Origin: a virus
Reading direction: 5' to 3' (one strand)
Length of the DNA: 20,402 bases
Virus record (IMG/VR): IMGVR_UViG_3300007640_000331
Location: 1-20,402 of that record
The first letter of the stretch is position 1. Each line of letters opens with the position of its first letter. The notes below the pieces were generated by a model that saw only the letters and a list, made by a program, of their open reading frames with translations, was not told the origin of the DNA and made no database searches. Of the stretch, positions 1,876-15,701 are shown in pieces. The position numbers and the translations under genes were made by a program.

Positions 1876-2107
1876 GATGTCAGACCAGGAAGAAGAGGCA
1901 TTCGCAAAAGCGAAGGCTATCTTATCTGAGCATTTCCCGAACTGGGCTATTATCGTCATAGATGATGAAGCTTCGCTGTCATATGATTATACTAATTATT
2001 ACATAGGTAAGACTCTCTGCAGAGAGACCTTATCTGAAATGAATAAAGATGATATTGAATTAATATGGGAAGAAGCGGATTTGGAGGACGAAGAAGATGG
2101 AACTTAG
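1862..2107 (+). CDS. Small acidic protein between terS and terL, 81 aa
   Basis: The gene is wedged between the terminase subunits, overlapping terS by 14 bases and terL by 11. A purine-rich GGGAGAGG (1848-1855) sits six bases before ATG 1862 and supports that start; a second in-frame ATG lies five codons later. The protein is strongly acidic, with an N-terminal helix (SDQEEEAFAKAKAILSEHF), a central hydrophobic and aromatic stretch (WAIIVIDDEASLSYDYTNYY) and a very acidic tail. I do not recognise a named family. Tight coupling to both subunits suggests a packaging accessory or a regulator of terminase, but that is inference only. Confidence 0.7.
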   Translation: MSKNKMSDQEEEAFAKAKAILSEHFPNWAIIVIDDEASLSYDYTNYYIGKTLCRETLSEMNKDDIELIWEEADLEDEEDGT

Positions 2108-3752
2108 CTTTACCCCGCATCCTATACTTTCTGCACCTACAGACGAAGAGATTGTAGCACTTGGCGAGAATGACCCACAGTTACTAAAGGCTTTGTATGA
2201 TGCACACGAAGGGCGAATCCGCGCTTCAGAAGAAGACCCTATACGGCATGGCTTTGATTTAGCAGGATGGGAGCGAATGTACGAAGGGCTTTCTCAGTAC
2301 AATGAGTGCCTGGTGCTTGGAGGTAATCGTAGTGGTAAAACCACAGGGTGTGCGAAACTGCTGATGAAGGCAGTTACTGAGAACCAAGAGGGACACGTTA
2401 TTTGCTTTTCGCAGAATATAGATACAAGTATCAAGATTCAACAGAAGGCCGTATGGGAAATGATGCCGAAGGAGTTCAGACGGAAGACCAAGAGTACAGA
2501 GGGTTATATTAATTACTCTATGCAGAATGGCTTTACAGGGCAGAGCTTTATCTTCCCAGATACTAAGACTAGGGTAGACTTTAAAACTTATACACAGTTT
2601 AGTAACAATCAGACAATCTTGGAGGGTTTTGAATTCGGCTTCAAGAACCCCGAAGGCACTAATATTGGAGCGTGGCTTGATGAGTACCTAGGTGATGCGA
2701 CCCTAGTAAACACTTTGCGATTCCGTCTTGCGACCAGAAACTCTAAGTTACTGATAGGCTTTACGCCTATTGATGGGTACACACCATTTATAAATGAGTA
2801 CCTAAGAGGAGCAGAAACATTAGAAACACGAGAAGCGAAGTTATTAGATAGAGCATTGCCAGTTAAACAGTATAGTACAGAGAGAGATGCAAGTATAATT
2901 TATTTACATTCCGATGAAAACCCCTTTGGTGGTTATGAGCGTATAGCCAAAGACCTCAAGGGCAGACCAGAAGAAGAAATTATGGTTAGAGCATATGGCG
3001 TGCCAGTCAAATCAATGACTAGCTTATTGCCATTGTTTAATACCGAAGTTAATGTATTATCCGAAACACCAAACAAATATGGACACACCTTCCCAGATAT
3101 TAAAAATAGACAACGATTTACTAATTATTGTGTGGTCGACCCCGCAGGAGCAAGAAACTATACTGCGATATGGGCTGCAGTTGATAAAGAAGGACGAGTC
3201 TTTATTTCCAGGGAATGGCCTGATAGAGGCTCATACGGAGAGTGGGCTGTTTTTGGCGACCCAAAATGGAGATATGGACCAGCATCTAAGAAGATTGGAT
3301 ATAATGTTGAAGGATATGTAGAATTATTCAAGGACATAGAATCTGACTTAGGTATTAAAGTATTTGAACGAATCGGTGACTCTAGGTATTTCGCTAGAGA
3401 GAACGAAAACAATGACGACCTATTTACTACATTTAGTGACTACGGTATGGATTTCGTTCCATCTGATGGCAGAGGCGAGGACATGGGAATCTCTGCCTTA
3501 GATGATTGGTTCAATTACAACCCCAATGTAGAAATAGATAATGCCAATAGACCTTTATGTTATATTCATAAGGATTGCGGTAATCTTATAGACAGTATCA
3601 TTAATTACAATGCAAGGGGCAAATCGGACGAAGCACTAAAGGATTTTTTTGATGTACTGAGATATTTACGAATGGCAAACGGTGGTGAAGGCCCCGACCA
3701 CGTAGATTCTGTAAACTTAAACGCAACCCGCAAAGCTAAAGGAGGATATTAA
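2097..3752 (+). CDS. terL: Terminase large subunit (TerL), 551 aa
   Basis: This is the ATPase and nuclease that drives DNA into the prohead and cuts the concatemer. The N-terminal ATPase has a Walker A loop GGNRSGKTT (75-83), a Walker B-like WLDE (193-196, hydrophobic strand then Asp-Glu) and a coupling motif IGFTP (220-224). The C-terminal RNase H-like nuclease shows the expected spaced acidic residues: Asp348 in VVDPAG, Asp428 in GDSRYF and Asp519 in FFDVLRYL. The length is typical of the family. GGAGG at 2083-2087 lies nine bases before ATG 2097 and fixes the start. The last base of the stop codon is the first base of the next ATG (TAATG), implying translational coupling. I see no sign of interruption or intein. 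Confidence 0.95.
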   Translation: MELSFTPHPILSAPTDEEIVALGENDPQLLKALYDAHEGRIRASEEDPIRHGFDLAGWERMYEGLSQYNECLVLGGNRSGKTTGCAKLLMKAVTENQEGHVICFSQNIDTSIKIQQKAVWEMMPKEFRRKTKSTEGYINYSMQNGFTGQSFIFPDTKTRVDFKTYTQFSNNQTILEGFEFGFKNPEGTNIGAWLDEYLGDATLVNTLRFRLATRNSKLLIGFTPIDGYTPFINEYLRGAETLETREAKLLDRALPVKQYSTERDASIIYLHSDENPFGGYERIAKDLKGRPEEEIMVRAYGVPVKSMTSLLPLFNTEVNVLSETPNKYGHTFPDIKNRQRFTNYCVVDPAGARNYTAIWAAVDKEGRVFISREWPDRGSYGEWAVFGDPKWRYGPASKKIGYNVEGYVELFKDIESDLGIKVFERIGDSRYFARENENNDDLFTTFSDYGMDFVPSDGRGEDMGISALDDWFNYNPNVEIDNANRPLCYIHKDCGNLIDSIINYNARGKSDEALKDFFDVLRYLRMANGGEGPDHVDSVNLNATRKAKGGY

Positions 3753-7584: not shown

Positions 7585-8598
7585 ATGTCGTTTTCAAATA
7601 CATTCGATACAACCAATACAGGTTCTGCTGTTTCTAACCGTGAGGATTTGACAGATGTCTTAACAATCCTTGCGCCAGAAGAAACCCCAGTCCTGTCCTC
7701 AGCATCGAAGACGAAAGCTAACGCAACATTTGCAGAGTGGACAGTAGACAAATTAGCCGACCCTGGAACATCTGGTGTTTCAGAAGGTGCTGACGTTACT
7801 ACTTTCTCTGACAAATTTGCAGAACGCGCTCGTCTTGGTAACTATGTGCAAAAATTCCGTAGAGATTATATGGTTTCTGATTTACAAGAAGCCGTTGACT
7901 CTGTTGGACCTGCTAAAGTTGCCCAAGCAGAATCAAAAGCAATCCGTGAACTTAAACGTGACGTAGAAGCTACAATCCTTAGTGACAATGACCGCTCTGT
8001 TGAGAACGGTGCAGGCACTAACTATGGCTTACGTGGACTAGGTAAATGGTTAGCTGACGGTACAACAATCGCAGGTACTCCTGCAGATATTCCTGCAGAT
8101 TACGTAACACCAACATTAAACAACTCCGATGAAGGAGATGCTTTTACTGAAACTATTCTTAATACTCAGTTATCAGAAATCTTCCGTCAAACTGGACAAT
8201 CTAGCAATATGATGCTTGTTGTTGATACTGCGCTTCGCCGCCGTATCTCTGACTTTGCTCGTCTTGCAGGTAATGTTGGAACTAATCCATTACGTCAAGT
8301 AAATATGGACCAAGGTCAAACAACTATTAAGTTGTCAGTTGAACTCTATGAGTCTGACCACGGTGTTGTTTCTGTTGTTAATATGAACCCTGTTACTGCA
8401 CCTGCTACTGTTACTGGAGCAAATACATCCCACGCAGACGGTTACATCATTAACCCAGATTATGTTGGTATTCACGAGCTTATCCCTATGGGAAGCACAC
8501 GCCTACCTAACTTAGGTGGTGGCGAGCGTGGATTTGTTGATTGTGCGTTGACTCTTGGTGTATACCACCCTGCAGCTCACGGTAAAATTATTGCTTAA
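7585..8598 (+). CDS. Major capsid protein, SU10/DUF5309-like, 337 aa
   Basis: This is the shell protein of the head. I recognise the N-terminus: NREDLTDVLTILAPEETPVL followed by KTKANATFAEWTVDKL matches the pattern of the SU10-type capsid family (DUF5309), which is HK97-fold. An E-loop-like charged region and a long helix follow (about 85-135, KFAERARLGNYVQKFRRDY then ESKAIRELKRDVEATIL). The C-terminal half is beta-rich and ends AAHGKIIA. The length fits the family. Position after scaffold agrees. Surprisingly for the most abundant virion protein, ATG 7585 is preceded by A/T-only sequence (AAAACTTAAAATATT) with no Shine-Dalgarno sequence. No protease gene or obvious pro-domain is seen. Confidence 0.9.
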   Translation: MSFSNTFDTTNTGSAVSNREDLTDVLTILAPEETPVLSSASKTKANATFAEWTVDKLADPGTSGVSEGADVTTFSDKFAERARLGNYVQKFRRDYMVSDLQEAVDSVGPAKVAQAESKAIRELKRDVEATILSDNDRSVENGAGTNYGLRGLGKWLADGTTIAGTPADIPADYVTPTLNNSDEGDAFTETILNTQLSEIFRQTGQSSNMMLVVDTALRRRISDFARLAGNVGTNPLRQVNMDQGQTTIKLSVELYESDHGVVSVVNMNPVTAPATVTGANTSHADGYIINPDYVGIHELIPMGSTRLPNLGGGERGFVDCALTLGVYHPAAHGKIIA

Positions 8599-9088: not shown

Positions 9089-9400
9089 ATGGTCGATATA
9101 ATTACAGATATACCTAAAGATTTCACAACTGGTGAGCTTGACCAAGCATTCATCAATGAAATTAAAAGTGGTTTTAAGTTGGAAAAAGAAACCGAGCATT
9201 TGCGTGTACAACAAGCACGCAAGGAAGCACAAGAAGAAAAAGGCAAGACGCACCCTGTTCTAGGAAAGTGCGTAGCTACAATGCCTGCTAGAGAGTTCTT
9301 CCGTTTAACAGGAAAGTATGGACACGATGAAATACATTCCAAAAAATTTTTAAAATACTATCAAAGAAATTTTGGCGATTTGTCGCCCAATAAAATATAA
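9089..9400 (+). CDS. Small hypothetical phage protein, 103 aa
   Basis: ATG 9089 follows immediately on the T-run of the terminator, so there is no room for a normal ribosome-binding site. The N-terminal half is acidic and helical, with a charged segment 28-53. The C-terminal part, HPVLGKCVATMPAREFFRLTG (55-75) and then HSKKFLKYYQRNFGDLSP, resembles a small family I have seen in marine podovirus genomes near head-tail genes, without known function. The single Cys61 sits in that conserved block. The stop overlaps the next start as TAATG. A head-completion or connector-assembly role is only inferred from position. Confidence 0.72.
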   Translation: MVDIITDIPKDFTTGELDQAFINEIKSGFKLEKETEHLRVQQARKEAQEEKGKTHPVLGKCVATMPAREFFRLTGKYGHDEIHSKKFLKYYQRNFGDLSPNKI

Positions 9401-10398
9401 TGCAAACTAGAACTTACGGAAGTTTATTTAAATTGATAAAATCATTAGCGGGTGTTAGTTCATTTACTGATGATGAACAGGCTGACATTTCAAGATTTAT
9501 TAATCGTAGGTTTTTTCAAGCTTTTAACGAAAGTCCTATATGGGTTCGTTATTTGGTTACAGGCGAAAAAAGACCTGTAAGCAGTTTTAAAGAAGGTGGT
9601 CAATATTTTTCAATATTAGGCAAAGACCAAAATGGAATTAATTTTTATTTAGATACAGCAGATAAAAATTATGGCTATGTTAGAAGTGCAGGAACTGGCG
9701 ATAAATATTGGTCGAGTATTGTTAGTGATGCAGTTTTTACAACTAACCCTATTACTGGTGTAATTACATATAGCAGTTCTACTGATGAATTTGTACAGGA
9801 CTATACAGGAACAAATTATTTAGATGACTCAGTATACGATACTCCCGAAAAAGTAAAAGCTTGGAGAGGTACTGGATTAGGAGGAACTGCTCCAGAAGCA
9901 AAAAACTTTGATTCTGTAAATTTAGTACAGTTTACAAGTCTTTCTTTACCTATATTAAATAGTACAGTTACATTATCAACTTTACAAGAAATAGGAGAAT
10001 TTATAAGAATACATAGAACTGAACCATATTTAAGTCAAGGAGCAGATGAATATGATTTTATCGTCACTAAAGACGGTGCAGAAATTTTAAACTTTGACAA
10101 TAATTCTAGTGCAACTGGTTATGCCTATGTAACTTATAAAAAACCATTTACTGCTTTTACTACAAGTTCTGATTACGATACATCTACAGAAGAAGTTCCA
10201 GAAGAGTTTTTTGCATTTATTGCTCATACTGCATATGCAGATTTTTTACGTATGGATGGTCAGCATCAAAAAGCACTTTTAGAAGAACAAACTGCTAAAG
10301 GTGCATTAGATTTGCAACTTGAACGTAATGATATAATCAGCAACAATAACAACGCAAACATGAGATTTTCAACCTACGTAAGTAGACAATCACGATAA
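9400..10398 (+). CDS. Probable head-tail connector (adaptor) protein, 332 aa
   Basis: The N-terminus is helical and basic (MQTRTYGSLFKLIKSLAGV, then DDEQADISRFINRRFFQAFN with conserved-looking aromatic and Arg residues). It resembles the start of adaptor (gp4- or tail-tube-A-like) proteins of podoviruses. The middle (60-190) is beta-rich, and the C-terminus (about 265-325) is helical, with EEFFAFIAHTAYADFLRMDGQHQKALLEEQTAKG. The helix-beta-helix order and the site between capsid and tail genes fit a ring binding below the portal. Start ATG 9400 overlaps the previous stop and has no Shine-Dalgarno sequence. The connector name is inference from position and pattern. Confidence 0.68.
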   Translation: MQTRTYGSLFKLIKSLAGVSSFTDDEQADISRFINRRFFQAFNESPIWVRYLVTGEKRPVSSFKEGGQYFSILGKDQNGINFYLDTADKNYGYVRSAGTGDKYWSSIVSDAVFTTNPITGVITYSSSTDEFVQDYTGTNYLDDSVYDTPEKVKAWRGTGLGGTAPEAKNFDSVNLVQFTSLSLPILNSTVTLSTLQEIGEFIRIHRTEPYLSQGADEYDFIVTKDGAEILNFDNNSSATGYAYVTYKKPFTAFTTSSDYDTSTEEVPEEFFAFIAHTAYADFLRMDGQHQKALLEEQTAKGALDLQLERNDIISNNNNANMRFSTYVSRQSR

Positions 10399-10400
10399 TT

Positions 10401-10715
10401 ATGCCAAACTCAAGAGTATCAAACTTATATCCATTTGTAAATAACTCTGTAGATAATATGGAGATGCTATCTGTTGGTACAGGAGCAGTCGCCACATTTC
10501 AAACTACATATAATCAAAGAACTCGTTACATTGTATTAGATGTACAAGACAACGATGTATATGTAACCTATACAGGCGAGACACCTAGTGCTACATTAGG
10601 TCATATCCTATATGCAGGACGTAGTTACACTTGGAATGTAGAAACAGCCCAAGCTGCTAAGTTTCTGTCCGTTGGAGGTACAGCAATTATAGCCGCTACA
10701 GAATTTACTGACTAA
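10401..10715 (+). CDS. Small virion-type protein, 104 aa
   Basis: The gene begins two bases after the previous stop (TAATTATG) and overlaps the following start as TAATG. It has no Shine-Dalgarno sequence. The protein is beta-rich and soluble: repeated Thr, Val, Tyr and Gly, motifs such as TRYIVLDVQDNDVYVTYTGE and RSYTWNVETAQAAKFLSVGG. It reads like a compact jelly-roll or Ig-like domain of about 100 residues, common in head or tail decoration and stopper proteins. I do not recognise the family. Confidence 0.65.
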   Translation: MPNSRVSNLYPFVNNSVDNMEMLSVGTGAVATFQTTYNQRTRYIVLDVQDNDVYVTYTGETPSATLGHILYAGRSYTWNVETAQAAKFLSVGGTAIIAATEFTD

Positions 10716-11725
10716 TGGAACGTTTCCCACTAGGTTCTGCCGTTGATGTACTAGACGGAAGCCTTGCTTCTGCTTGGAGTGCATTAGATGGTAATACTGC
10801 AGGTAGTCCCTATTTGCCACCTAGTATACCTGGTAACGCATTAGACCACCCTACTTGGGACGCTTCTGAAGCTGCACCACCATTTTATGAAGTATTTAAT
10901 GGAATAACTTATTTTGATAATAGTTGGGGGCATTATGGGCAGTTGTATCCTTATGAGACATTTGCAACAATAACTAGAAATTTTTGGAAAGCTAACTTTC
11001 CTGCATTTAAAGATTTAGGTGGTGTAGACTTAGATGACCAACCTAAGGTTATAAAGATGTATGGAATGGGAAACAACTTTCCAGATAATACAGGAGACTA
11101 TGCTAATGATGATAACACTAGAGGGTCAATAAATACTAACATACCTTTAACTGCATTTTCTGAAACTGCACCTGCAGGAACTTATCCTGATAGTGGTAGT
11201 TGGACTAAGATTGAATGGATGCAAGGTGTAGATATACCTGACTCAGCAACTAAGGCTACATTTGGTGCATATATAAGAGTAGAAAGTGATGATGATTTTA
11301 GAGCTAAAAATTGTGGAGGTGTATATACATGGCAGGATGTTAGTGAAACATCAGACCCAGAAGTATATGTAAACTCTATAATATGTAAAAGAGATGCAGA
11401 TACAATAAATTTAGTAACAGGAACACAGTCAACTGGATTTAACTCAACACAACAATGGTCTGGTATGACTAATATAGAAGATGGTAATGGTAATTATTCA
11501 TCAACAAGAAAAAATAACATTACACATGTAGAGAGTATTGATTATGTAAATAGCTCTAATTATAGACAGTTTAGAAGAATAGAAAAAGAGGTAACATTAC
11601 AAACAGGCACAAGTAGAAAGTTAGGATTTGGCATGTTCTTCGCAGAAAACCAAGCAAACCTAGATGGTGCTGCAGTAAATACAGGTTCAATAGATTTTTA
11701 TAATAGTTTTGTAGTTTTTGAATAA
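10715..11725 (+). CDS. Virion-type protein of unknown role, 336 aa
   Basis: This frame of 336 codons is coupled at both ends by TAATG overlaps. The N-terminal 120 residues are rich in Pro, Trp, Tyr and Phe (for example YFDNSWGHYGQLYPYETFATITRNFWK). The rest is Asn/Thr/Ser/Asp-rich and looks beta-structured, with TWQDVSETSDPEVYVNS and a C-terminal LGFGMFFAENQANLDGAAVN. Composition suggests an extracellular virion protein such as a tail or head fibre. There is no signal peptide or catalytic motif I can recognise. Cys199 and Cys223 are the only cysteines I noticed. It could instead be a tail-spike base or minor head protein. Confidence 0.65.
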   Translation: MERFPLGSAVDVLDGSLASAWSALDGNTAGSPYLPPSIPGNALDHPTWDASEAAPPFYEVFNGITYFDNSWGHYGQLYPYETFATITRNFWKANFPAFKDLGGVDLDDQPKVIKMYGMGNNFPDNTGDYANDDNTRGSINTNIPLTAFSETAPAGTYPDSGSWTKIEWMQGVDIPDSATKATFGAYIRVESDDDFRAKNCGGVYTWQDVSETSDPEVYVNSIICKRDADTINLVTGTQSTGFNSTQQWSGMTNIEDGNGNYSSTRKNNITHVESIDYVNSSNYRQFRRIEKEVTLQTGTSRKLGFGMFFAENQANLDGAAVNTGSIDFYNSFVVFE

Positions 11726-11898
11726 TGGAAGATTTAATTAACAGACTAACGGTATCATTTTTAGGAGTATTAGCATCTTGGGGCTTGATGGATATAAGTT
11801 TAATCTTAGCTAGTATTGCATCGGTTGGTACAATAATACACACAGCTTTAGGAATAAAGAAACTTATAGATGAGCAGAAAAAAGGAAAATCCGATTAG
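11725..11898 (+). CDS. Tiny membrane protein, holin-like, 57 aa
   Basis: I found this short gene by direct translation. ATG 11725 shares its A with the preceding stop (TAATG), and the frame ends with TAG at 11896-11898. Residues 8-46 are almost entirely hydrophobic with small residues (SFLGVLASWGLMDISLILAS then IASVGTIIHTALGI). This allows one long or two short membrane helices around Met22-Asp23. The C-terminus is a lysine-rich tail (KKLIDEQKKGKSD). Small size, membrane span and basic tail are typical of phage holins, which make the inner-membrane hole for lysis. The last 29 bases overlap the next gene in another frame. A holin role is inferred; a small membrane anchor is the alternative. 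Confidence 0.65.
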   Translation: MEDLINRLTVSFLGVLASWGLMDISLILASIASVGTIIHTALGIKKLIDEQKKGKSD

Positions 11899-12163
11899 AC
11901 GTACGACTAGCAAGGGTGGTAACTATAGACCAACCAAGCAAGGCGCAGGAATGACCAAGAAGGGGGTAGAAGCTTACAAGCGTAAAAACCCTGGGTCTAA
12001 GCTCAAAACTGCCGTTACAGGCAATCCTAAGAAAGGTAGCAAGGACGCAAAGCGTAGAAAGTCATATTGTGCTAGAAGTGCAGGACAGATGAAGAAGTTT
12101 CCTAAAGCCGCTAAAGACCCTAACTCAAGACTAAGACAAGCCAGAAGGAGATGGAAATGCTAA
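11870..12163 (+). CDS. Basic DUF6321-like protein, 97 aa
   Basis: This protein is about one third Lys and Arg. I recognise the pattern MTKKGVEAYKRKNPGSKLKT, then KRRKSYCARSAGQMKKF and the terminal RLRQARRRWKC, as that of the DUF6321 family found in many marine phage genomes. Its function is not known to me. Two cysteines, Cys67 and the terminal Cys97, are family features. The gene starts inside the membrane-peptide gene (29-base overlap), and its stop overlaps the next small gene. The high charge suggests nucleic-acid or polyphosphate binding; that is inference. A mobile homing-endonuclease-like role is less likely because no catalytic motif is visible. Confidence 0.8.
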   Translation: MSRKKENPIRRTTSKGGNYRPTKQGAGMTKKGVEAYKRKNPGSKLKTAVTGNPKKGSKDAKRRKSYCARSAGQMKKFPKAAKDPNSRLRQARRRWKC

Positions 12164-12246
12164 TGAAAGGTGCTTGTTGTTCAGAATGCGCTGCCAAGGC
12201 AGTACCACAAAGAAAAACTGTTTCGTATAAACGGAGAAAAGTTTAA
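12157..12246 (+). CDS. Micro-protein with CCxxC motif, 29 aa
   Basis: This very short frame was found by direct reading. It starts at ATG 12157, six bases behind AAGGAG (12145-12150); a second ATG at 12163 is 12 bases away and less favourable. The peptide has three closely placed cysteines (CCSEC, residues 7-11 counting from ATG 12157) and a basic tail QRKTVSYKRRKV. The stop overlaps the next ATG as TAATG, and both neighbours are real small genes, so it is probably translated. One CxxC pair cannot bind zinc alone, but a dimer could. Function unknown. Confidence 0.55.
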   Translation: MLMKGACCSECAAKAVPQRKTVSYKRRKV

Positions 12247-12350
12247 TGCCGTTTAAGTCAGAAAAACAGAGAAAATTTTTATATGCTAACAAACCAAAGT
12301 TAGCAAAGCAATGGACAAAGAAGTATGGCACAAAAAAGAAAAGGAAATAA
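12246..12350 (+). CDS. Basic micro-protein MPFKSEKQRKF type, 34 aa
   Basis: This frame overlaps the previous stop by one base. GGAG at 12233-12236 lies nine bases upstream. The sequence starts MPFKSEKQRKFLYANKPKLA and continues KQWTKKYGTKKKRK, with 14 of 34 residues Lys or Arg. Short proteins with this opening are widespread in marine phage genomes and are recognisable by MPFKSE-QR-FL-ANKP. No function is known to me. They may bind nucleic acid or ribosomes because of the charge; this is inference. The last 26 bases overlap the next gene in another frame. Confidence 0.68.
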   Translation: MPFKSEKQRKFLYANKPKLAKQWTKKYGTKKKRK

Positions 12351-12492
12351 AATCTGTGCAGCAGGTAAAGCTTGGGCTAGGCGTACATTTGATACATACC
12401 CTAGTGCTTATGCTAATATGGCTGCATCTAAGTATTGTAAAGACCCTAACTATGCTAAAGGAGCAAAGGGCAAGAAAAGAAAGAAAAAGTAA
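12325..12492 (+). CDS. Basic cysteine-containing mini-protein, 55 aa
   Basis: This gene begins within the previous one. ATG 12325 is followed by KICAAGKAWARRTFDTYPSA and then ANMAASKYCKDPNYAKGA. This opening is familiar from small proteins of marine phages (C-AGK-AW----F-YPSAYAN---S-YCKDP). Two cysteines (Cys11 and Cys38) and a polylysine tail GKKRKKK are present. About one third of the residues are Lys or Arg. Two conserved-looking cysteines separated by a helical, aromatic segment suggest a small fold held by metal or disulfide. The stop overlaps the next start as TAATG. Function unknown. Confidence 0.68.
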   Translation: MAQKRKGNKICAAGKAWARRTFDTYPSAYANMAASKYCKDPNYAKGAKGKKRKKK

Positions 12493-12728
12493 TGGGTGAG
12501 CTTAAAAAGTGGAGAGACCAAAACTGGGTTCGCATCGGAACTGACGGAAAGATTAAGGGGGCTTGCGGTACGTCTAAAAACAAGAAAAACCCCGACAGAT
12601 GCCTTCCAATGGCTAAAGCCAAGAGTTTATCGCAGTCTCAGCGAGCAGCTACTGCAAAAAAGAAAAAACGAAGTAAAAAAACCGTAGTGAAAAATACACC
12701 TGCGGCAAAAGTAAGGAGTAAGAAATAA
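12492..12728 (+). CDS. Basic DUF5872-like protein, 78 aa
   Basis: The protein has the pattern LKKWRDQNWVRIGTDGKIKG, then ACGTSKNKKNPDRCLPMAKA, that I associate with DUF5872-like small proteins of viruses. Cys25 and Cys37 frame a Lys/Asn-rich loop. The C-terminal half is a Lys-, Arg- and Ala-rich tail (ATAKKKKRSKKTVVK...). Tail composition resembles H1-type histone tails. The gene starts at the TAATG overlap with the preceding gene and ends with a TAATG overlap to the next. Function is unknown; nucleic-acid binding is the simplest guess from charge. Confidence 0.75.
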   Translation: MGELKKWRDQNWVRIGTDGKIKGACGTSKNKKNPDRCLPMAKAKSLSQSQRAATAKKKKRSKKTVVKNTPAAKVRSKK

Positions 12729-13117
12729 TGGACGATATACAAGCATTAGGATTAGGAAGTGCAATGGGCTTTGTATTTAAGCTTGTAGGCACTTTAGTAG
12801 AAGCACAGAAGGCAACCGTACAGACAGTTCTAGAAAAGCAAGATATGGCTGATTCTAGTGCAGATAGAGCGGCATCTAGGGAAGGTGGAGTCATAGTAAG
12901 AAGAACCATTGTAGGAGCTATTTTATTTGCACTTATATTAGTACCGTTTATTTTGGCGTTTACTGAAAGAGGTGTAACCGTACTAGAGGCAAAAAGCTTT
13001 TTATTTTTTGAATGGTCTACTTGGCAAACTCTTGCAGGTTATGTTATACTACCCGAAGTTAGACAAACTTTACTTGCCATTGTAGGATTTTACTTTGGCT
13101 CATCTCAAATCAAATAA
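12728..13117 (+). CDS. Holin-like membrane protein, 129 aa
   Basis: This is a membrane protein with a good Shine-Dalgarno sequence AAGGAG (12713-12718) nine bases before ATG 12728. The first 20 residues form an amphipathic helix (LGLGSAMGFVFKLVGTL), and a charged linker follows (25-55, EAQKATVQTVLEKQD). A strong membrane helix lies at 56-79 (VRRTIVGAILFALILVPFIL). A weaker hydrophobic region at 92-108 and a C-terminal helix at 113-124 could cross the membrane too. The layout fits the three-helix holin group seen near phage tail genes (GTA_holin_3TM type). It would form holes in the inner membrane for lysis, but a structural or injection role cannot be excluded. No endolysin is adjacent. Confidence 0.62.
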   Translation: MDDIQALGLGSAMGFVFKLVGTLVEAQKATVQTVLEKQDMADSSADRAASREGGVIVRRTIVGAILFALILVPFILAFTERGVTVLEAKSFLFFEWSTWQTLAGYVILPEVRQTLLAIVGFYFGSSQIK

Positions 13118-13121
13118 TATT

Positions 13122-13214
13122 ATGCCCTACGGAAAAGGAACATACGGAAACAAAGTTGGACGACCATCCAAAGCTGCTAAAGCTAAAGGTCGTGCAATGA
13201 AAAAACGCAAATAA
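13122..13214 (+). CDS. Basic micro-protein MPYGKGTYG type, 30 aa
   Basis: A 30-codon frame begins at ATG 13122, four bases after the previous stop, within TAATATTATG. It encodes MPYGKGTYGNKVGRPSKAAK and ends AKGRAMKKRK, with 11 of 30 residues Lys or Arg. Peptides that open MPYGKGTYG are familiar from marine phage genomes near tail genes. The opening is Gly/Tyr-rich and the tail Lys-rich, like a mini nucleic-acid-binding peptide. Function unknown. Confidence 0.6.
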   Translation: MPYGKGTYGNKVGRPSKAAKAKGRAMKKRK

Positions 13215-13215
13215 T

Positions 13216-13488
13216 ATGGCTGTTAAAAAAACAACTAAAAAGAAAACTGCCAAGAAAGCTCCTAAAGCTACAGGTTCTTCTAGCAAGATTGCTAAGTTAG
13301 AACAACGTATTGCTGCATTGGAAGCTAAGATGGGTGGTAATCGTCCACAAGCGCCACGCCCTCAAGCACCGCGTCCACAACCACAAATGGCTCAGAGACC
13401 TCAAGCACCTGCTAGACCGCAGATGCCTAGACCTCAAATGGCACAAGGCGGTATGCCTCGTCCTCCGATGCCTGGAATGCGCGGTTAG
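13216..13488 (+). CDS. Histone H1-like Lys-rich/coiled-coil/Pro-Gln repeat protein, 90 aa
   Basis: There are three visible parts. Residues 1-20 are Lys/Thr/Ala-rich (AVKKTTKKKTAKKAPKATG), like the tails of H1-type histones and bacterial Hc1/AlgP-like proteins. Residues 23-39 are a short heptad-patterned coil (SKIAKLEQRIAALEAKM). Residues 41-90 are a disordered repeat of Arg-Pro-Gln-Ala/Met units (RPQAPRPQAPRPQ, later RPQMPRPQM) ending PMPGMRG. Such a chain may neutralise DNA with its N-terminus and multimerise through the coil; this is inference. The gene starts one base after the preceding stop and lacks a Shine-Dalgarno sequence. A shifted frame over the same stretch is also open, but its composition and start are less credible. 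Confidence 0.72.
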   Translation: MAVKKTTKKKTAKKAPKATGSSSKIAKLEQRIAALEAKMGGNRPQAPRPQAPRPQPQMAQRPQAPARPQMPRPQMAQGGMPRPPMPGMRG

Positions 13489-13493
13489 AATGA

Positions 13494-15701
13494 ATGGCTC
13501 GATACGATACATATGGTGCTGCTGATGACCAAATAATAGAGGATTCAGACACTACATTTAGAGGTTTTAACAACAGGTCAAGACCAGATTCGTTAGAGCC
13601 TGGTATGTTACAGCTTTCTGAAAATGTTAGGTTTGACACAAATGGAGTGGTTTCAAAGAGAAAAACTGTTAATGTTTTATCTGCCCCTTTTACTACAGTA
13701 GGAACAAGTCAATTAACATTACCTTTTAATTTAGACCCTTACCCTCCAGGTACTGATTTTATTGCTCGTAGCACAACTATATTAGGTGGAAATAGACTTG
13801 AATTATTGGTATCTGGTGGTGGAAGTAATGCAGGATACACAACAGGGATTTATGGTCTAACACTTACAGCAGACCCCGATAATAATTTTACAGATTTTAT
13901 TGATGGAAATTATAATATGACTTCTAGCGCTTCTGGGACTGATGTAGATTTTACTTTTCCTAATAATGATTTCTCTTTTAGAAACATATCAAATACAACT
14001 TGGAAGGTAACGGGTCCTATATTATCCAATGCACAAAATACTAGAGTAGTAGGTTCTAATAATTTTGTAGACCCTGCTAATAGCGATGAAGAGTATATAT
14101 TATTAGCGGGTACTTCAGCTGCAGTAGCAGTAAAAATTAGTGATGGGTCAAATACTACTATTGCTTACCCTAGTGGTCACGTTCTTAACGAAAATACTGT
14201 AACTGTATTACAAGCTTTTGATAAAGTTTTTATTTTTGAAAAGGGTCACGTGCCTATGTCTTGGGACATAAATTTTTCAAATGCTTTTGTAGATGAAGAA
14301 AGTGGTACATTTACACAACCTACTTTAAAAGCAGGTACTGCTGATATAACAAATGGATTAGTAGAACTTACAGGTATAACTAATACTGGTTTCGGTGCAT
14401 TAACTACTGGTGATGAAATTTCAATTATTGATTCGCATAATACTGGATTGACAGATGGAGATATTTATCAAGTAGCAGAAGCTGATGCAACAAGTATATC
14501 TTTTTACGCTGAAGTAGCTGATGTTAATAATGATGCACTAGATGTTATTGGCAGAGTATCTGGTGGAGCAGGGTTTATACACGCTCCTGCACCCGAAGAT
14601 GCGATACTTCATCGCAATAGATTGGTAGTACCATATAAGTTTACGGTTAATGCAGGAGAAGATAGCTATACAGCAAGAAATGTAACAGATGAATTATTAA
14701 TTTCCTTTCCGTTTAACGGAGAAAAGTTCGATACTACATATGGAACATTTGTAACAGCAGGTGGTGCTAATGATTCTTTTGTAGCTGCGTTTTCTTTTGC
14801 CGATGATAAGTTATTGATGTTTAACAGAAAAAGCATTTCTATTGTAACAGGAGTAGATAGTTTTAACTTTCAAGAAGCTAGAGTTCAAGTTTTAACAAGA
14901 GAAATTGGATTAGTCGCAAAAGATTCTATTGTACAAGTTGGTAATCAAATACTATTTCTTTCAGATAGTGGAGTATATGGAGTTAACTTCCAAGACCTAT
15001 ATAATTTAAGAGGTAATGATGTTCCTTTGAGTTCTGCAATAGATAATACGATACAAGGCATAGATAAAGATAATTGGCATAAATCTAGTGCTGTATATTT
15101 TGACAATAGATATTACATCGCTGTTCCTATAGGTTCATCTGGAAACAACACAAGAGTTATCGTTTATAATTTTTTGAATAAAGCTTGGGAAAGTCTTGAT
15201 AAAGTTAATAATACTGGATTTTCTATGGATAAGTTAATAGTTGCGGGAACTGGAACAAAACGTGGAGTATACGCAGTTAATTCCTTAGGTGGAGTTCATC
15301 AATTAGAAGCTAACGATTCTGATTCTCAAGATTCAACTATAGTTGAAATTGGAGGCTCTGCACAACTTACTAATATAAATTCGAGAATAATAACAAGACA
15401 ATATAATTTAGGAACTATAGATAGAAAAAAATGGAACAATTATGAAGTTGTTATAAGTAATGCTACTAGTGCAGATACTGTTGTTACCGTAACGATACAA
15501 ACAGAAAACCGTGACAGAGTTGGAGGTCCAAAAGAATATAGACCTAGTAATTTCGAAGGGGTTTCCTTCCGTGATAGAATAGGTAATCTAAGAGCTTATG
15601 GAGCGCAAGCAGAAATAGAAAACTCTAGCGGTCGATTTACTCTTAGTCAATTTCAAATTGCGGGAGCTTTAACTTTCCGTTCACAAAACAAAGCAGAATA
15701 A
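13494..15701 (+). CDS. Large tail protein, probably nozzle/tail-tube type, 735 aa
   Basis: The N-terminal block DSDTTFRGFNNRSRPDSLEP, followed by GMLQLSENVRFDTNGVVSKRK, is familiar from long beta-rich tail proteins of podoviruses (tail tubular B, nozzle or stabilisation type). The rest is Asn/Thr/Ser/Gly/Asp-rich and almost all-beta. A beta-propeller-like series runs through residues 350-600, with DDKLLMFNRKSISIVTGVDS, VGNQILFLSDSGVYGVNF and NKAWESLDKVNN. The length fits such nozzle proteins. It is followed directly by a fibre gene, as expected for a tail tip. The start is chosen at ATG 13494, six bases after the preceding stop; an ATG at 13490 is in a different frame. The exact tail role is inferred. 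Confidence 0.72.
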   Translation: MARYDTYGAADDQIIEDSDTTFRGFNNRSRPDSLEPGMLQLSENVRFDTNGVVSKRKTVNVLSAPFTTVGTSQLTLPFNLDPYPPGTDFIARSTTILGGNRLELLVSGGGSNAGYTTGIYGLTLTADPDNNFTDFIDGNYNMTSSASGTDVDFTFPNNDFSFRNISNTTWKVTGPILSNAQNTRVVGSNNFVDPANSDEEYILLAGTSAAVAVKISDGSNTTIAYPSGHVLNENTVTVLQAFDKVFIFEKGHVPMSWDINFSNAFVDEESGTFTQPTLKAGTADITNGLVELTGITNTGFGALTTGDEISIIDSHNTGLTDGDIYQVAEADATSISFYAEVADVNNDALDVIGRVSGGAGFIHAPAPEDAILHRNRLVVPYKFTVNAGEDSYTARNVTDELLISFPFNGEKFDTTYGTFVTAGGANDSFVAAFSFADDKLLMFNRKSISIVTGVDSFNFQEARVQVLTREIGLVAKDSIVQVGNQILFLSDSGVYGVNFQDLYNLRGNDVPLSSAIDNTIQGIDKDNWHKSSAVYFDNRYYIAVPIGSSGNNTRVIVYNFLNKAWESLDKVNNTGFSMDKLIVAGTGTKRGVYAVNSLGGVHQLEANDSDSQDSTIVEIGGSAQLTNINSRIITRQYNLGTIDRKKWNNYEVVISNATSADTVVTVTIQTENRDRVGGPKEYRPSNFEGVSFRDRIGNLRAYGAQAEIENSSGRFTLSQFQIAGALTFRSQNKAE

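What the first reader, a model, noticed from the sequence alone, without database searches (positions are those of the whole stretch)
11725..13488. Translationally stitched cassette of mini-proteins between tail-module halves
Nine consecutive small genes of 57, 97, 29, 34, 55, 78, 129, 30 and 90 codons lie between two long virion genes. Most overlap the next start by TAATG or by longer out-of-frame overlaps. Six are Lys/Arg-rich. Two look like holins. Three are so short that ordinary gene calling would skip them. A conserved set of tiny basic proteins in a late operon is unusual. It may be a DNA-condensing or virion-packaged protein set, or an anti-host set, combined with lysis.
Basis: partly seen in the sequence, partly recalled or inferred. 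Interest (0 to 1): 0.75.

Follow-up and report, generated by a model that had tools for sequence, protein, structure and literature searches.

The report
Cassette of tiny basic virion proteins
This marine virus of bacteria carries a tightly packed, swappable row of very small, positively charged proteins whose relatives in other ocean phages are fused into one protein that is labelled or detected as part of the virus particle, so they are probably packed with the viral DNA, although that has not been shown directly.

Summary
In detail: nine overlapping small genes lie at 11725-13488, and Phage C75C1 has the same nine genes and identical junctions. Seven (not six) are strongly basic (pI 10-12, flanking virion proteins 4-5). 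Most are under purifying selection; the 34-codon gene (12246) is supported by one relative only, and the last (13216) is weakly constrained.

Across 80 related contigs the genes form a swappable set, all on the coding strand and in front of the Hc3-like gene. Modules are exchanged while the stop/start stitching is kept. The core trio, g5 (PSAYAN motif), g6 (DUF5872-like) and g2 (DUF6321), recurs next to head or packaging genes in unrelated cyanophages and pelagiphages.

In T4-like cyanophages the g6 and g2 domains, plus a short g5-like motif, are fused in one protein beside terminase. S-SCSM1's is labelled 'virion protein'; mass spectrometry found a DUF6321 protein in S-CREM2 virions. Stand-alone T4-like DUF6321 proteins begin with what looks like a capsid-targeting leader plus an (L/I)xE protease site.

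Best reading: basic virion proteins packaged with DNA, analogous to T4 internal proteins. Virion presence of the window's own proteins is inference. The two membrane proteins are separable; holin function is not shown.

The parts
11725..11898 (+). g1, 57 aa small hydrophobic membrane-type protein; starts inside the stop of the upstream 336-aa gene
   Evidence: homologues in 16 loci, including P8625 gp27 (weak, E about 0.02)
11870..12163 (+). g2, 97 aa, DUF6321 (PF19846, 49 bits, cutoff 28.5), pI 11.6; overlaps g1 by 29 nt
12157..12246 (+). g3, 29 aa CCxxC...KRRK protein; AAGGAG 6 nt before the start; overlaps g2 by 7 nt
   Evidence: relatives in L003-L005, L007, L068 and L083
12246..12350 (+). 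g4, 34 aa basic protein; replaced in L005 by a different basic module (KLEKASxAHAGQAK) that keeps the same 26-nt overlap with g5; absent in L003
   Evidence: weak PHROG_1375 match (E 0.005); only one close relative
12325..12492 (+). g5, 55 aa 'PSAYAN' family (phrog_27331, 7e-29)
12492..12728 (+). g6, 78 aa (phrog_23735, 1.5e-36); homologue of DUF5872 through intermediates
12728..13117 (+). g7, 129 aa membrane-type protein (phrog_38283, 1.4e-68): long N-terminal helix, second helix, hairpin, C-terminal helix (low-confidence model, pLDDT 66)
13122..13214 (+). g8, 30 aa MPxGKGTYGxKxGRPxKK family; 11 invariant residues over 25 sequences; AT-hook-like core in some relatives
13216..13488 (+). g9, 90 aa Lys-rich head, short coiled-coil-like stretch, Pro/Gln/Arg-rich tail, pI 12
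   Evidence: weakly constrained
13494..15701 (+). 735-aa Hc3-like/virion gene that follows the cassette in all relatives where it is on the contig

Best explanation
The cassette encodes a swappable kit of small basic proteins that are made late, as a translationally overlapping row, and are packaged in the particle, most likely inside the head in contact with the DNA, where they would neutralise phosphate charge and help compact or order the genome; they would be analogues of T4 internal head proteins. Phages that appear to use a prohead protease (T4-like cyanophages) deliver related domains as a multi-module protein, or as single modules with a capsid-targeting-like leader; this virus and other short-tailed phages encode the modules as separate tiny genes. 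Shown: gene structure, conservation, charge, module exchange, homology of g2 and g6 with domains of the fused T4-like protein, and mass-spectrometric detection of a DUF6321-containing protein in S-CREM2 virions. Inferred: virion presence of the window's own proteins, location inside the head, DNA binding, protease cleavage, and charge neutralisation. g1 and g7 are membrane proteins that share the operon but are a separable unit.
For: Seven proteins of pI 10-12 between virion proteins of pI 4-5. Conserved frames, junctions and purifying selection for most of the genes. Among 80 related contigs, 65 carry two or more of the basic families, every family hit is on the coding strand, and the families lie 5' of the Hc3-like gene. 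The g5/g6/g2 trio as separate ORFs lies between scaffold and capsid genes in P-SCSP2 and upstream of the capsid gene in HTVC027P; DUF6321 lies between scaffold and capsid in HTVC031P, just after capsid/cement in DSL-LC04, just after capsid in P-SCSP1s and before terminase in S-TIP28. In T4-like cyanophages the domains are fused in T4-GC119-type proteins beside terminase; S-SCSM1 gp29 is labelled 'virion protein' in a phage whose paper reports 45 virion proteins by mass spectrometry, S-B43's is labelled 'structural protein', and S-CREM2 ORF137 with a C-terminal DUF6321 is listed in the virion proteome (4 unique peptides; PMC10665884 Table 3). Stand-alone DUF6321 ORFs of cyanomyoviruses: 22 of 27 start MKx[FYL], 26 of 27 have (L/I)xE before the basic domain (16 sites against 4.1 in shuffles of 15 distinct leaders, 0 of 200), resembling the T4 capsid-targeting leader and gp21 rule described in PMC9026906. 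T4 internal proteins are small, basic and contact DNA phosphates through lysines (PMC3012670, PMC9026906).
Against: No virion proteomics exists for this phage or any phage with the separate mini-ORFs that I could find. S-CREM2 coverage is 4.1% and the peptides cannot be placed on the DUF6321 domain; S-SCSM1's evidence is a record label, as its supplementary table could not be opened. The g5 to PSAYAS match in the fusion is a short motif only (hhalign probability 68%, 19 columns). Strict (L/I)xE sites are not enriched in the long fused proteins (57 against 48.5, 17 of 200 shuffles). The window proteins have no targeting leader. P-SCSP1u, of the same clade as P-SCSP2 and P-SCSP1s, has a capsid shell made only of major capsid protein (PMC10575957), so any packaged copies are not ordered shell parts. 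No fold or PDB match shows DNA binding.
Confidence: 0.55

Rival explanations
1. The proteins are packaged and injected, and act on the host (blocking restriction or nucleoid proteins), as T4 IPI does, rather than serving the DNA inside the head.
For: T4 internal proteins are precisely such a mixed set, exchanged between phages because of host defences (PMC3012670, PMC9026906); module exchange between close relatives fits an arms race.
Against: g2, g5 and g6 are unusually conserved (g2 100% identical in L003 and L005; DUF6321 in 430 phage records with very different hosts), which does not fit host-specific inhibitors; no defence-related family match.
Confidence: 0.2
2. They are assembly or packaging helpers (scaffold, terminase or nucleic-acid chaperones) that act during head filling but are not kept in the mature particle.
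For: Repeated location beside scaffold, capsid and terminase genes.
Against: DUF6321-containing protein detected in purified S-CREM2 virions and virion labels in S-SCSM1 and S-B43; but contamination by abundant late proteins is possible.
Confidence: 0.13
3. The row is mainly a lysis cassette: g1 and g7 are holin and antiholin, and the basic peptides are membrane-active.
For: g1 and g7 have membrane-type segments and sit together in P8625 and many relatives; one g7 relative has a sub-threshold hit to GTA_holin_3TM (E 0.42).
Against: No significant holin family for g1 or g7; no endolysin recognised in the window; the basic families occur without g7 beside capsid genes in other phages.
Confidence: 0.07
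4. Cytoplasmic late-phase regulators that bind nucleic acid or ribosomes.
For: Basic, Cys-containing, AT-hook-like core in g8 relatives.
Against: Location in structural modules and virion evidence for relatives; no match to regulator or ribosomal families.
Confidence: 0.05

Closest known systems
T4 internal head proteins (IPI, IPII, IPIII) with capsid-targeting sequence
   Same: Small, basic, variable sets of late proteins packed with DNA; cyanomyovirus DUF6321 proteins have a similar-looking MKxF... leader and (L/I)xE site
   Different: No sequence relationship shown; the window proteins have no leader, and no prohead protease was recognised in the window
T4-like cyanophage protein cluster T4-GC119 (phrog_727/phrog_3477; S-SCSM1 gp29, Syn9 gp114, P-RSM4 gp120)
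   Same: Contains homologous DUF6321 and DUF5872-like domains and a PSAYA motif in one protein
   Different: One long protein beside terminase with extra modules, instead of separate overlapping mini-ORFs before an Hc3-like gene
Phage C75C1 (OQ984151) cassette
   Same: Same nine genes, order and junctions, g2-g9 93-100% identical
   Different: Its record misses g4 and annotates the wrong frame for g5
P-SCSP2 / HTVC027P small basic gene rows
   Same: PSAYAN, DUF5872-like and DUF6321 as separate neighbouring ORFs
   Different: Different phage lineages and positions (scaffold to capsid, or upstream of GroES and capsid); order PSAYAN-DUF5872-DUF6321, whereas the window has DUF6321 first

Membership tests
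DUF6321 (PF19846) | Profile score above the curated cutoff of 28.5 bits | tested here: met
   g2 scores 49 bits, E 9.9e-13
DUF5872 (PF19197) | Profile match of g6 itself | tested here: not met
   No hit for g6; relatives reach the family: L068 3.6e-13 and P-SCSP2 5e-14, and both align with the g6 profile. Treated as a distant relative, not a member
T4-type internal head proteins | Small basic late proteins | tested here: met
   Seven proteins with pI 10-12 in a structural-gene row
T4-type internal head proteins | N-terminal capsid-targeting leader cut after (L/I)xE | tested here: not met
   Absent from the window proteins; present-looking only in T4-like cyanophage relatives of g2. Hence 'works like', not 'is a member'
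T4-type internal head proteins | Presence inside the mature head and injection | not testable with these tools
   Only indirect: relatives detected or labelled in virions
Phage holins (g1, g7) | Match to a holin family | tested here: not met
   Nothing significant in Pfam, PHROGs or NCBIfam
Phage holins (g1, g7) | Lethal membrane permeabilisation | not testable with these tools
   Needs expression
AT-hook peptides (g8) | RGRP core flanked by basic residues, Pfam AT_hook match | tested here: inconclusive
   Window has KVGRPSK, several relatives KRGRPPxKK; one member hits AT_hook only at E 0.32

The most novel reading that the evidence does not exclude
Unrelated ocean phages share a transferable 'nucleoprotein kit': the same basic modules are encoded as translationally stitched mini-genes in short-tailed phages and as capsid-targeted multi-module proteins, possibly cut by the prohead protease, in T4-like phages; the modules are shuffled like cards in one genome slot, and one of them (DUF5872) is also named in a giant algal virus (PMC12085832).
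Probability: 0.35. Interest if true: 0.75.

Novelty: new variant of a known kind. Interest (0 to 1): 0.6.

Why it matters
DUF6321 matches 430 phage records, including SAR11 phage HTVC010P and hundreds of cyanophages, and the families here are annotated as unknown function. The comparison gives a concrete, testable role (packaged basic virion proteins), explains why genes too short for annotation persist, and shows that overlapping gene rows and fused multi-module proteins can carry related functions. It also warns that automatic annotation misses or misframes such genes.

Tried and rejected
PDB searches with profiles of g2, g5, g6 and g7 gave nothing significant (best a chance-like cytochrome c1 match, E 0.01, for g5). 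The predicted g2 structure (pLDDT 68; helical domain from about residue 30) had no PDB fold match. The g7 model was low confidence and matched only unnamed or uncharacterised phage proteins. Defence and NCBIfam libraries gave nothing. Papers naming DUF6321: none held. P-SSP7 and Syn5 head regions show no annotated cassette, so the kit is not universal in T7-like cyanophages. The idea that the long fused proteins are cut at strict (L/I)xE sites throughout was tested and is not supported for internal sites. The genome-contig search for the PSAYAN family found 19 loci, nearly all in metagenome-assembled genomes and not analysed further, so it gave no host assignment.
Full report
What is there. 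The window is an IMG/VR virus record of 20,402 bases, possibly a fragment. It holds the structural genes of a tailed phage: large terminase 2097-3752, a 696-aa portal-like gene, major capsid protein 7585-8598 (phrog_1328), an Hc3-like 735-aa gene 13494-15701 and a tail-fibre-like gene.

Reality of the genes. The closest record, Phage C75C1 (OQ984151), has all nine in the same order with identical overlaps: -29, -7, -1, -26, -1, -1, +4, +1. Pairwise comparison with C75C1 and three IMG/VR contigs gives pN/pS of 0-0.25 for g1, g2, g3, g5, g6, g7 and g8, with differences concentrated at third positions even in the 29- and 30-codon genes. g4 is supported only by C75C1 (100% identical, two synonymous changes) plus a Shine-Dalgarno-like GGAG; g9 is weakly constrained. 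g3 and g7 have AAGGAG at good spacing; the others rely on overlap or have weak sites, as do several long genes of this phage. The C75C1 record misses g4 and annotates an out-of-frame 62-codon ORF in place of g5. Seven of the nine proteins have pI 10-12; the nearest flanking virion proteins have pI 4.2-4.8.

A swappable set in one slot. A search with g7 brought 80 related viral contigs. Profiles of the basic families (g2, g3, g4, g5, g6, g8, g9 and two further basic modules seen in relatives, 'KLEKASKAHAGQAK' and 'LYxNINKRKKAG') were run on all ORFs. Sixty-five contigs hold two or more of the families, and all hits are on the coding strand. Where the Hc3-like gene is on the contig (42 loci), 170 of 175 basic genes lie 5' of it; the five exceptions are in contigs where its start, extrapolated from the alignment, falls 223-267 nt before the end of the last basic gene. 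In 25 of the 42 the last basic gene ends within about 12 nt of it. Junctions are kept while content changes: g5>g6 is a 1-nt overlap in 30 of 45 cases, g6>g2 a 1- or 4-nt overlap in 27 of 40. At the g4/g5 junction of the window the same 26-nt overlap exists in L005 with a different basic protein upstream, and in L003 g4 is cleanly absent with g3 stitched directly to g5. In L006 g3-g6 are replaced by one LYxNINKR-type protein. The window clade has DUF6321 (g2) upstream of the trio; most relatives have the order g7, g8, (KLEKAS), g5, g6, g2, Hc3.

The same modules elsewhere. In P-SCSP2 (T7-like, Prochlorococcus) the PSAYAN, DUF5872 and DUF6321 proteins lie between scaffold and capsid genes; in pelagiphage HTVC027P as PSAYAN, DUF5872-like, KASKTHAKQAK, DUF6321 upstream of GroES and capsid; in HTVC031P DUF6321 lies between scaffold and capsid; in P-SCSP1s DUF6321 plus an LYANIHAKRKR protein lies between capsid and gp11; in DSL-LC04 DUF6321 and PSAYAN follow capsid and cement; in S-TIP28 DUF6321 plus an LYRNINKR protein lies before terminase. 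So the modules travel together and sit in head or packaging regions of several unrelated phages.

Fusion and virion evidence. In T4-like cyanophages DUF6321 is the C-terminal domain of proteins between the small and large terminase genes (T4-GC119). S-SCSM1 gp29, S-B43, Syn9 gp114 and P-RSM4 gp120 also carry a DUF5872-like domain (g6 profile to S-SCSM1 gp29 iE 3.6e-5; PHROG cross-hits) and a PSAYAS segment. The PSAYAS link to g5 is a short motif, hhalign probability 68%, although one environmental fusion (L149) has a fuller PSAYAN segment. By motif, 24 of 50 longer IMG/VR proteins carry PSAYA, and others carry the LYANI or KASK..H module. S-SCSM1 gp29 is labelled 'virion protein' in a phage with a mass-spectrometric virion proteome of 45 proteins (PMC9602691); S-B43's is labelled structural; S-CREM2 ORF137 (108049-109521), which ends in DUF6321, is in the published virion proteome with 4 unique peptides and 4.1% coverage (PMC10665884 Table 3). 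Which part of ORF137 the peptides come from is unknown.

Leader and cleavage site. Where cyanomyoviruses encode DUF6321 alone, it starts with sequences such as MKSFKQLRIDINE|SAW or MKNFAQYIEE|DW. In 27 such ORFs, 22 begin MKx[FYL] and 26 have (L/I)xE ahead of the basic domain; 16 sites against 4.1 in shuffles of 15 distinct leaders. T4 internal proteins have a 10-residue capsid-targeting leader and gp21 cuts after L/I-x-E (PMC9026906). The resemblance is therefore specific but not proof. In the long fused proteins strict (L/I)xE is not enriched (57 against 48.5), and only the looser [LIVM]xE is (150 against 107.6; controls are also raised, 332 against 269). I therefore claim the leader site, not a fully cut multi-module protein.

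Mechanism. The most likely mechanism is charge-neutralising, DNA-associated virion proteins, made as an overlapping late row and packed with the genome. T4 offers the precedent: about 300 copies of each basic internal protein, lysines in contact with DNA phosphates (PMC9026906, PMC3012670). The P-SCSP1u shell contains only capsid protein (PMC10575957), so packaged copies in that clade would be internal or disordered. An injected anti-host role is the main rival and cannot be excluded.

The membrane pair. g1 and g7 homologues occur without the basic set in P8625, so they are separable. No family search identifies them as holins; the g7 model is low confidence.

Noticed in passing
L083 5584-5772 (C75C1 record 34644-34832): The GenBank record of C75C1 annotates an out-of-frame 62-codon ORF where the conserved g5 frame lies, starts the DUF6321 gene late, and omits g4.
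   Followed up: yes
L196, L198, L195, L151, L126: Environmental cyanomyovirus proteins join an LYANIHAKRKR-type module to DUF6321; L196 also has an MKxF-like leader and LxE sites between the parts.
   Followed up: partly
window 9400-11725 against L083, L003, L005: Strong mosaicism upstream of the cassette: the 332-aa gene is 36% identical to C75C1 but 90% to L003, while the neighbouring 104-aa gene is 100% identical to C75C1.
   Followed up: no
L068 5168-5986: A 272-codon ORF beginning like a glycosyltransferase is inserted between g1 and g7 in one relative, on the same strand.
   Followed up: no
L100-L118: PSAYAN-family hits in GTDB species genomes are nearly all in marine metagenome-assembled genomes, probably binned phage contigs.
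   Followed up: no
L089 495-2804 (P-TIM40 gp113): A 769-aa very Lys-rich protein directly upstream of the stand-alone DUF6321 gene; contains KKQQRFFGMVR and other short basic modules.
   Followed up: no
L092 3213-3533, L093 3206-3523: The gene right after the fused T4-GC119 protein starts MKTFKQFMSES / MKSFQDFLQES, also like a capsid-targeting leader.
   Followed up: no
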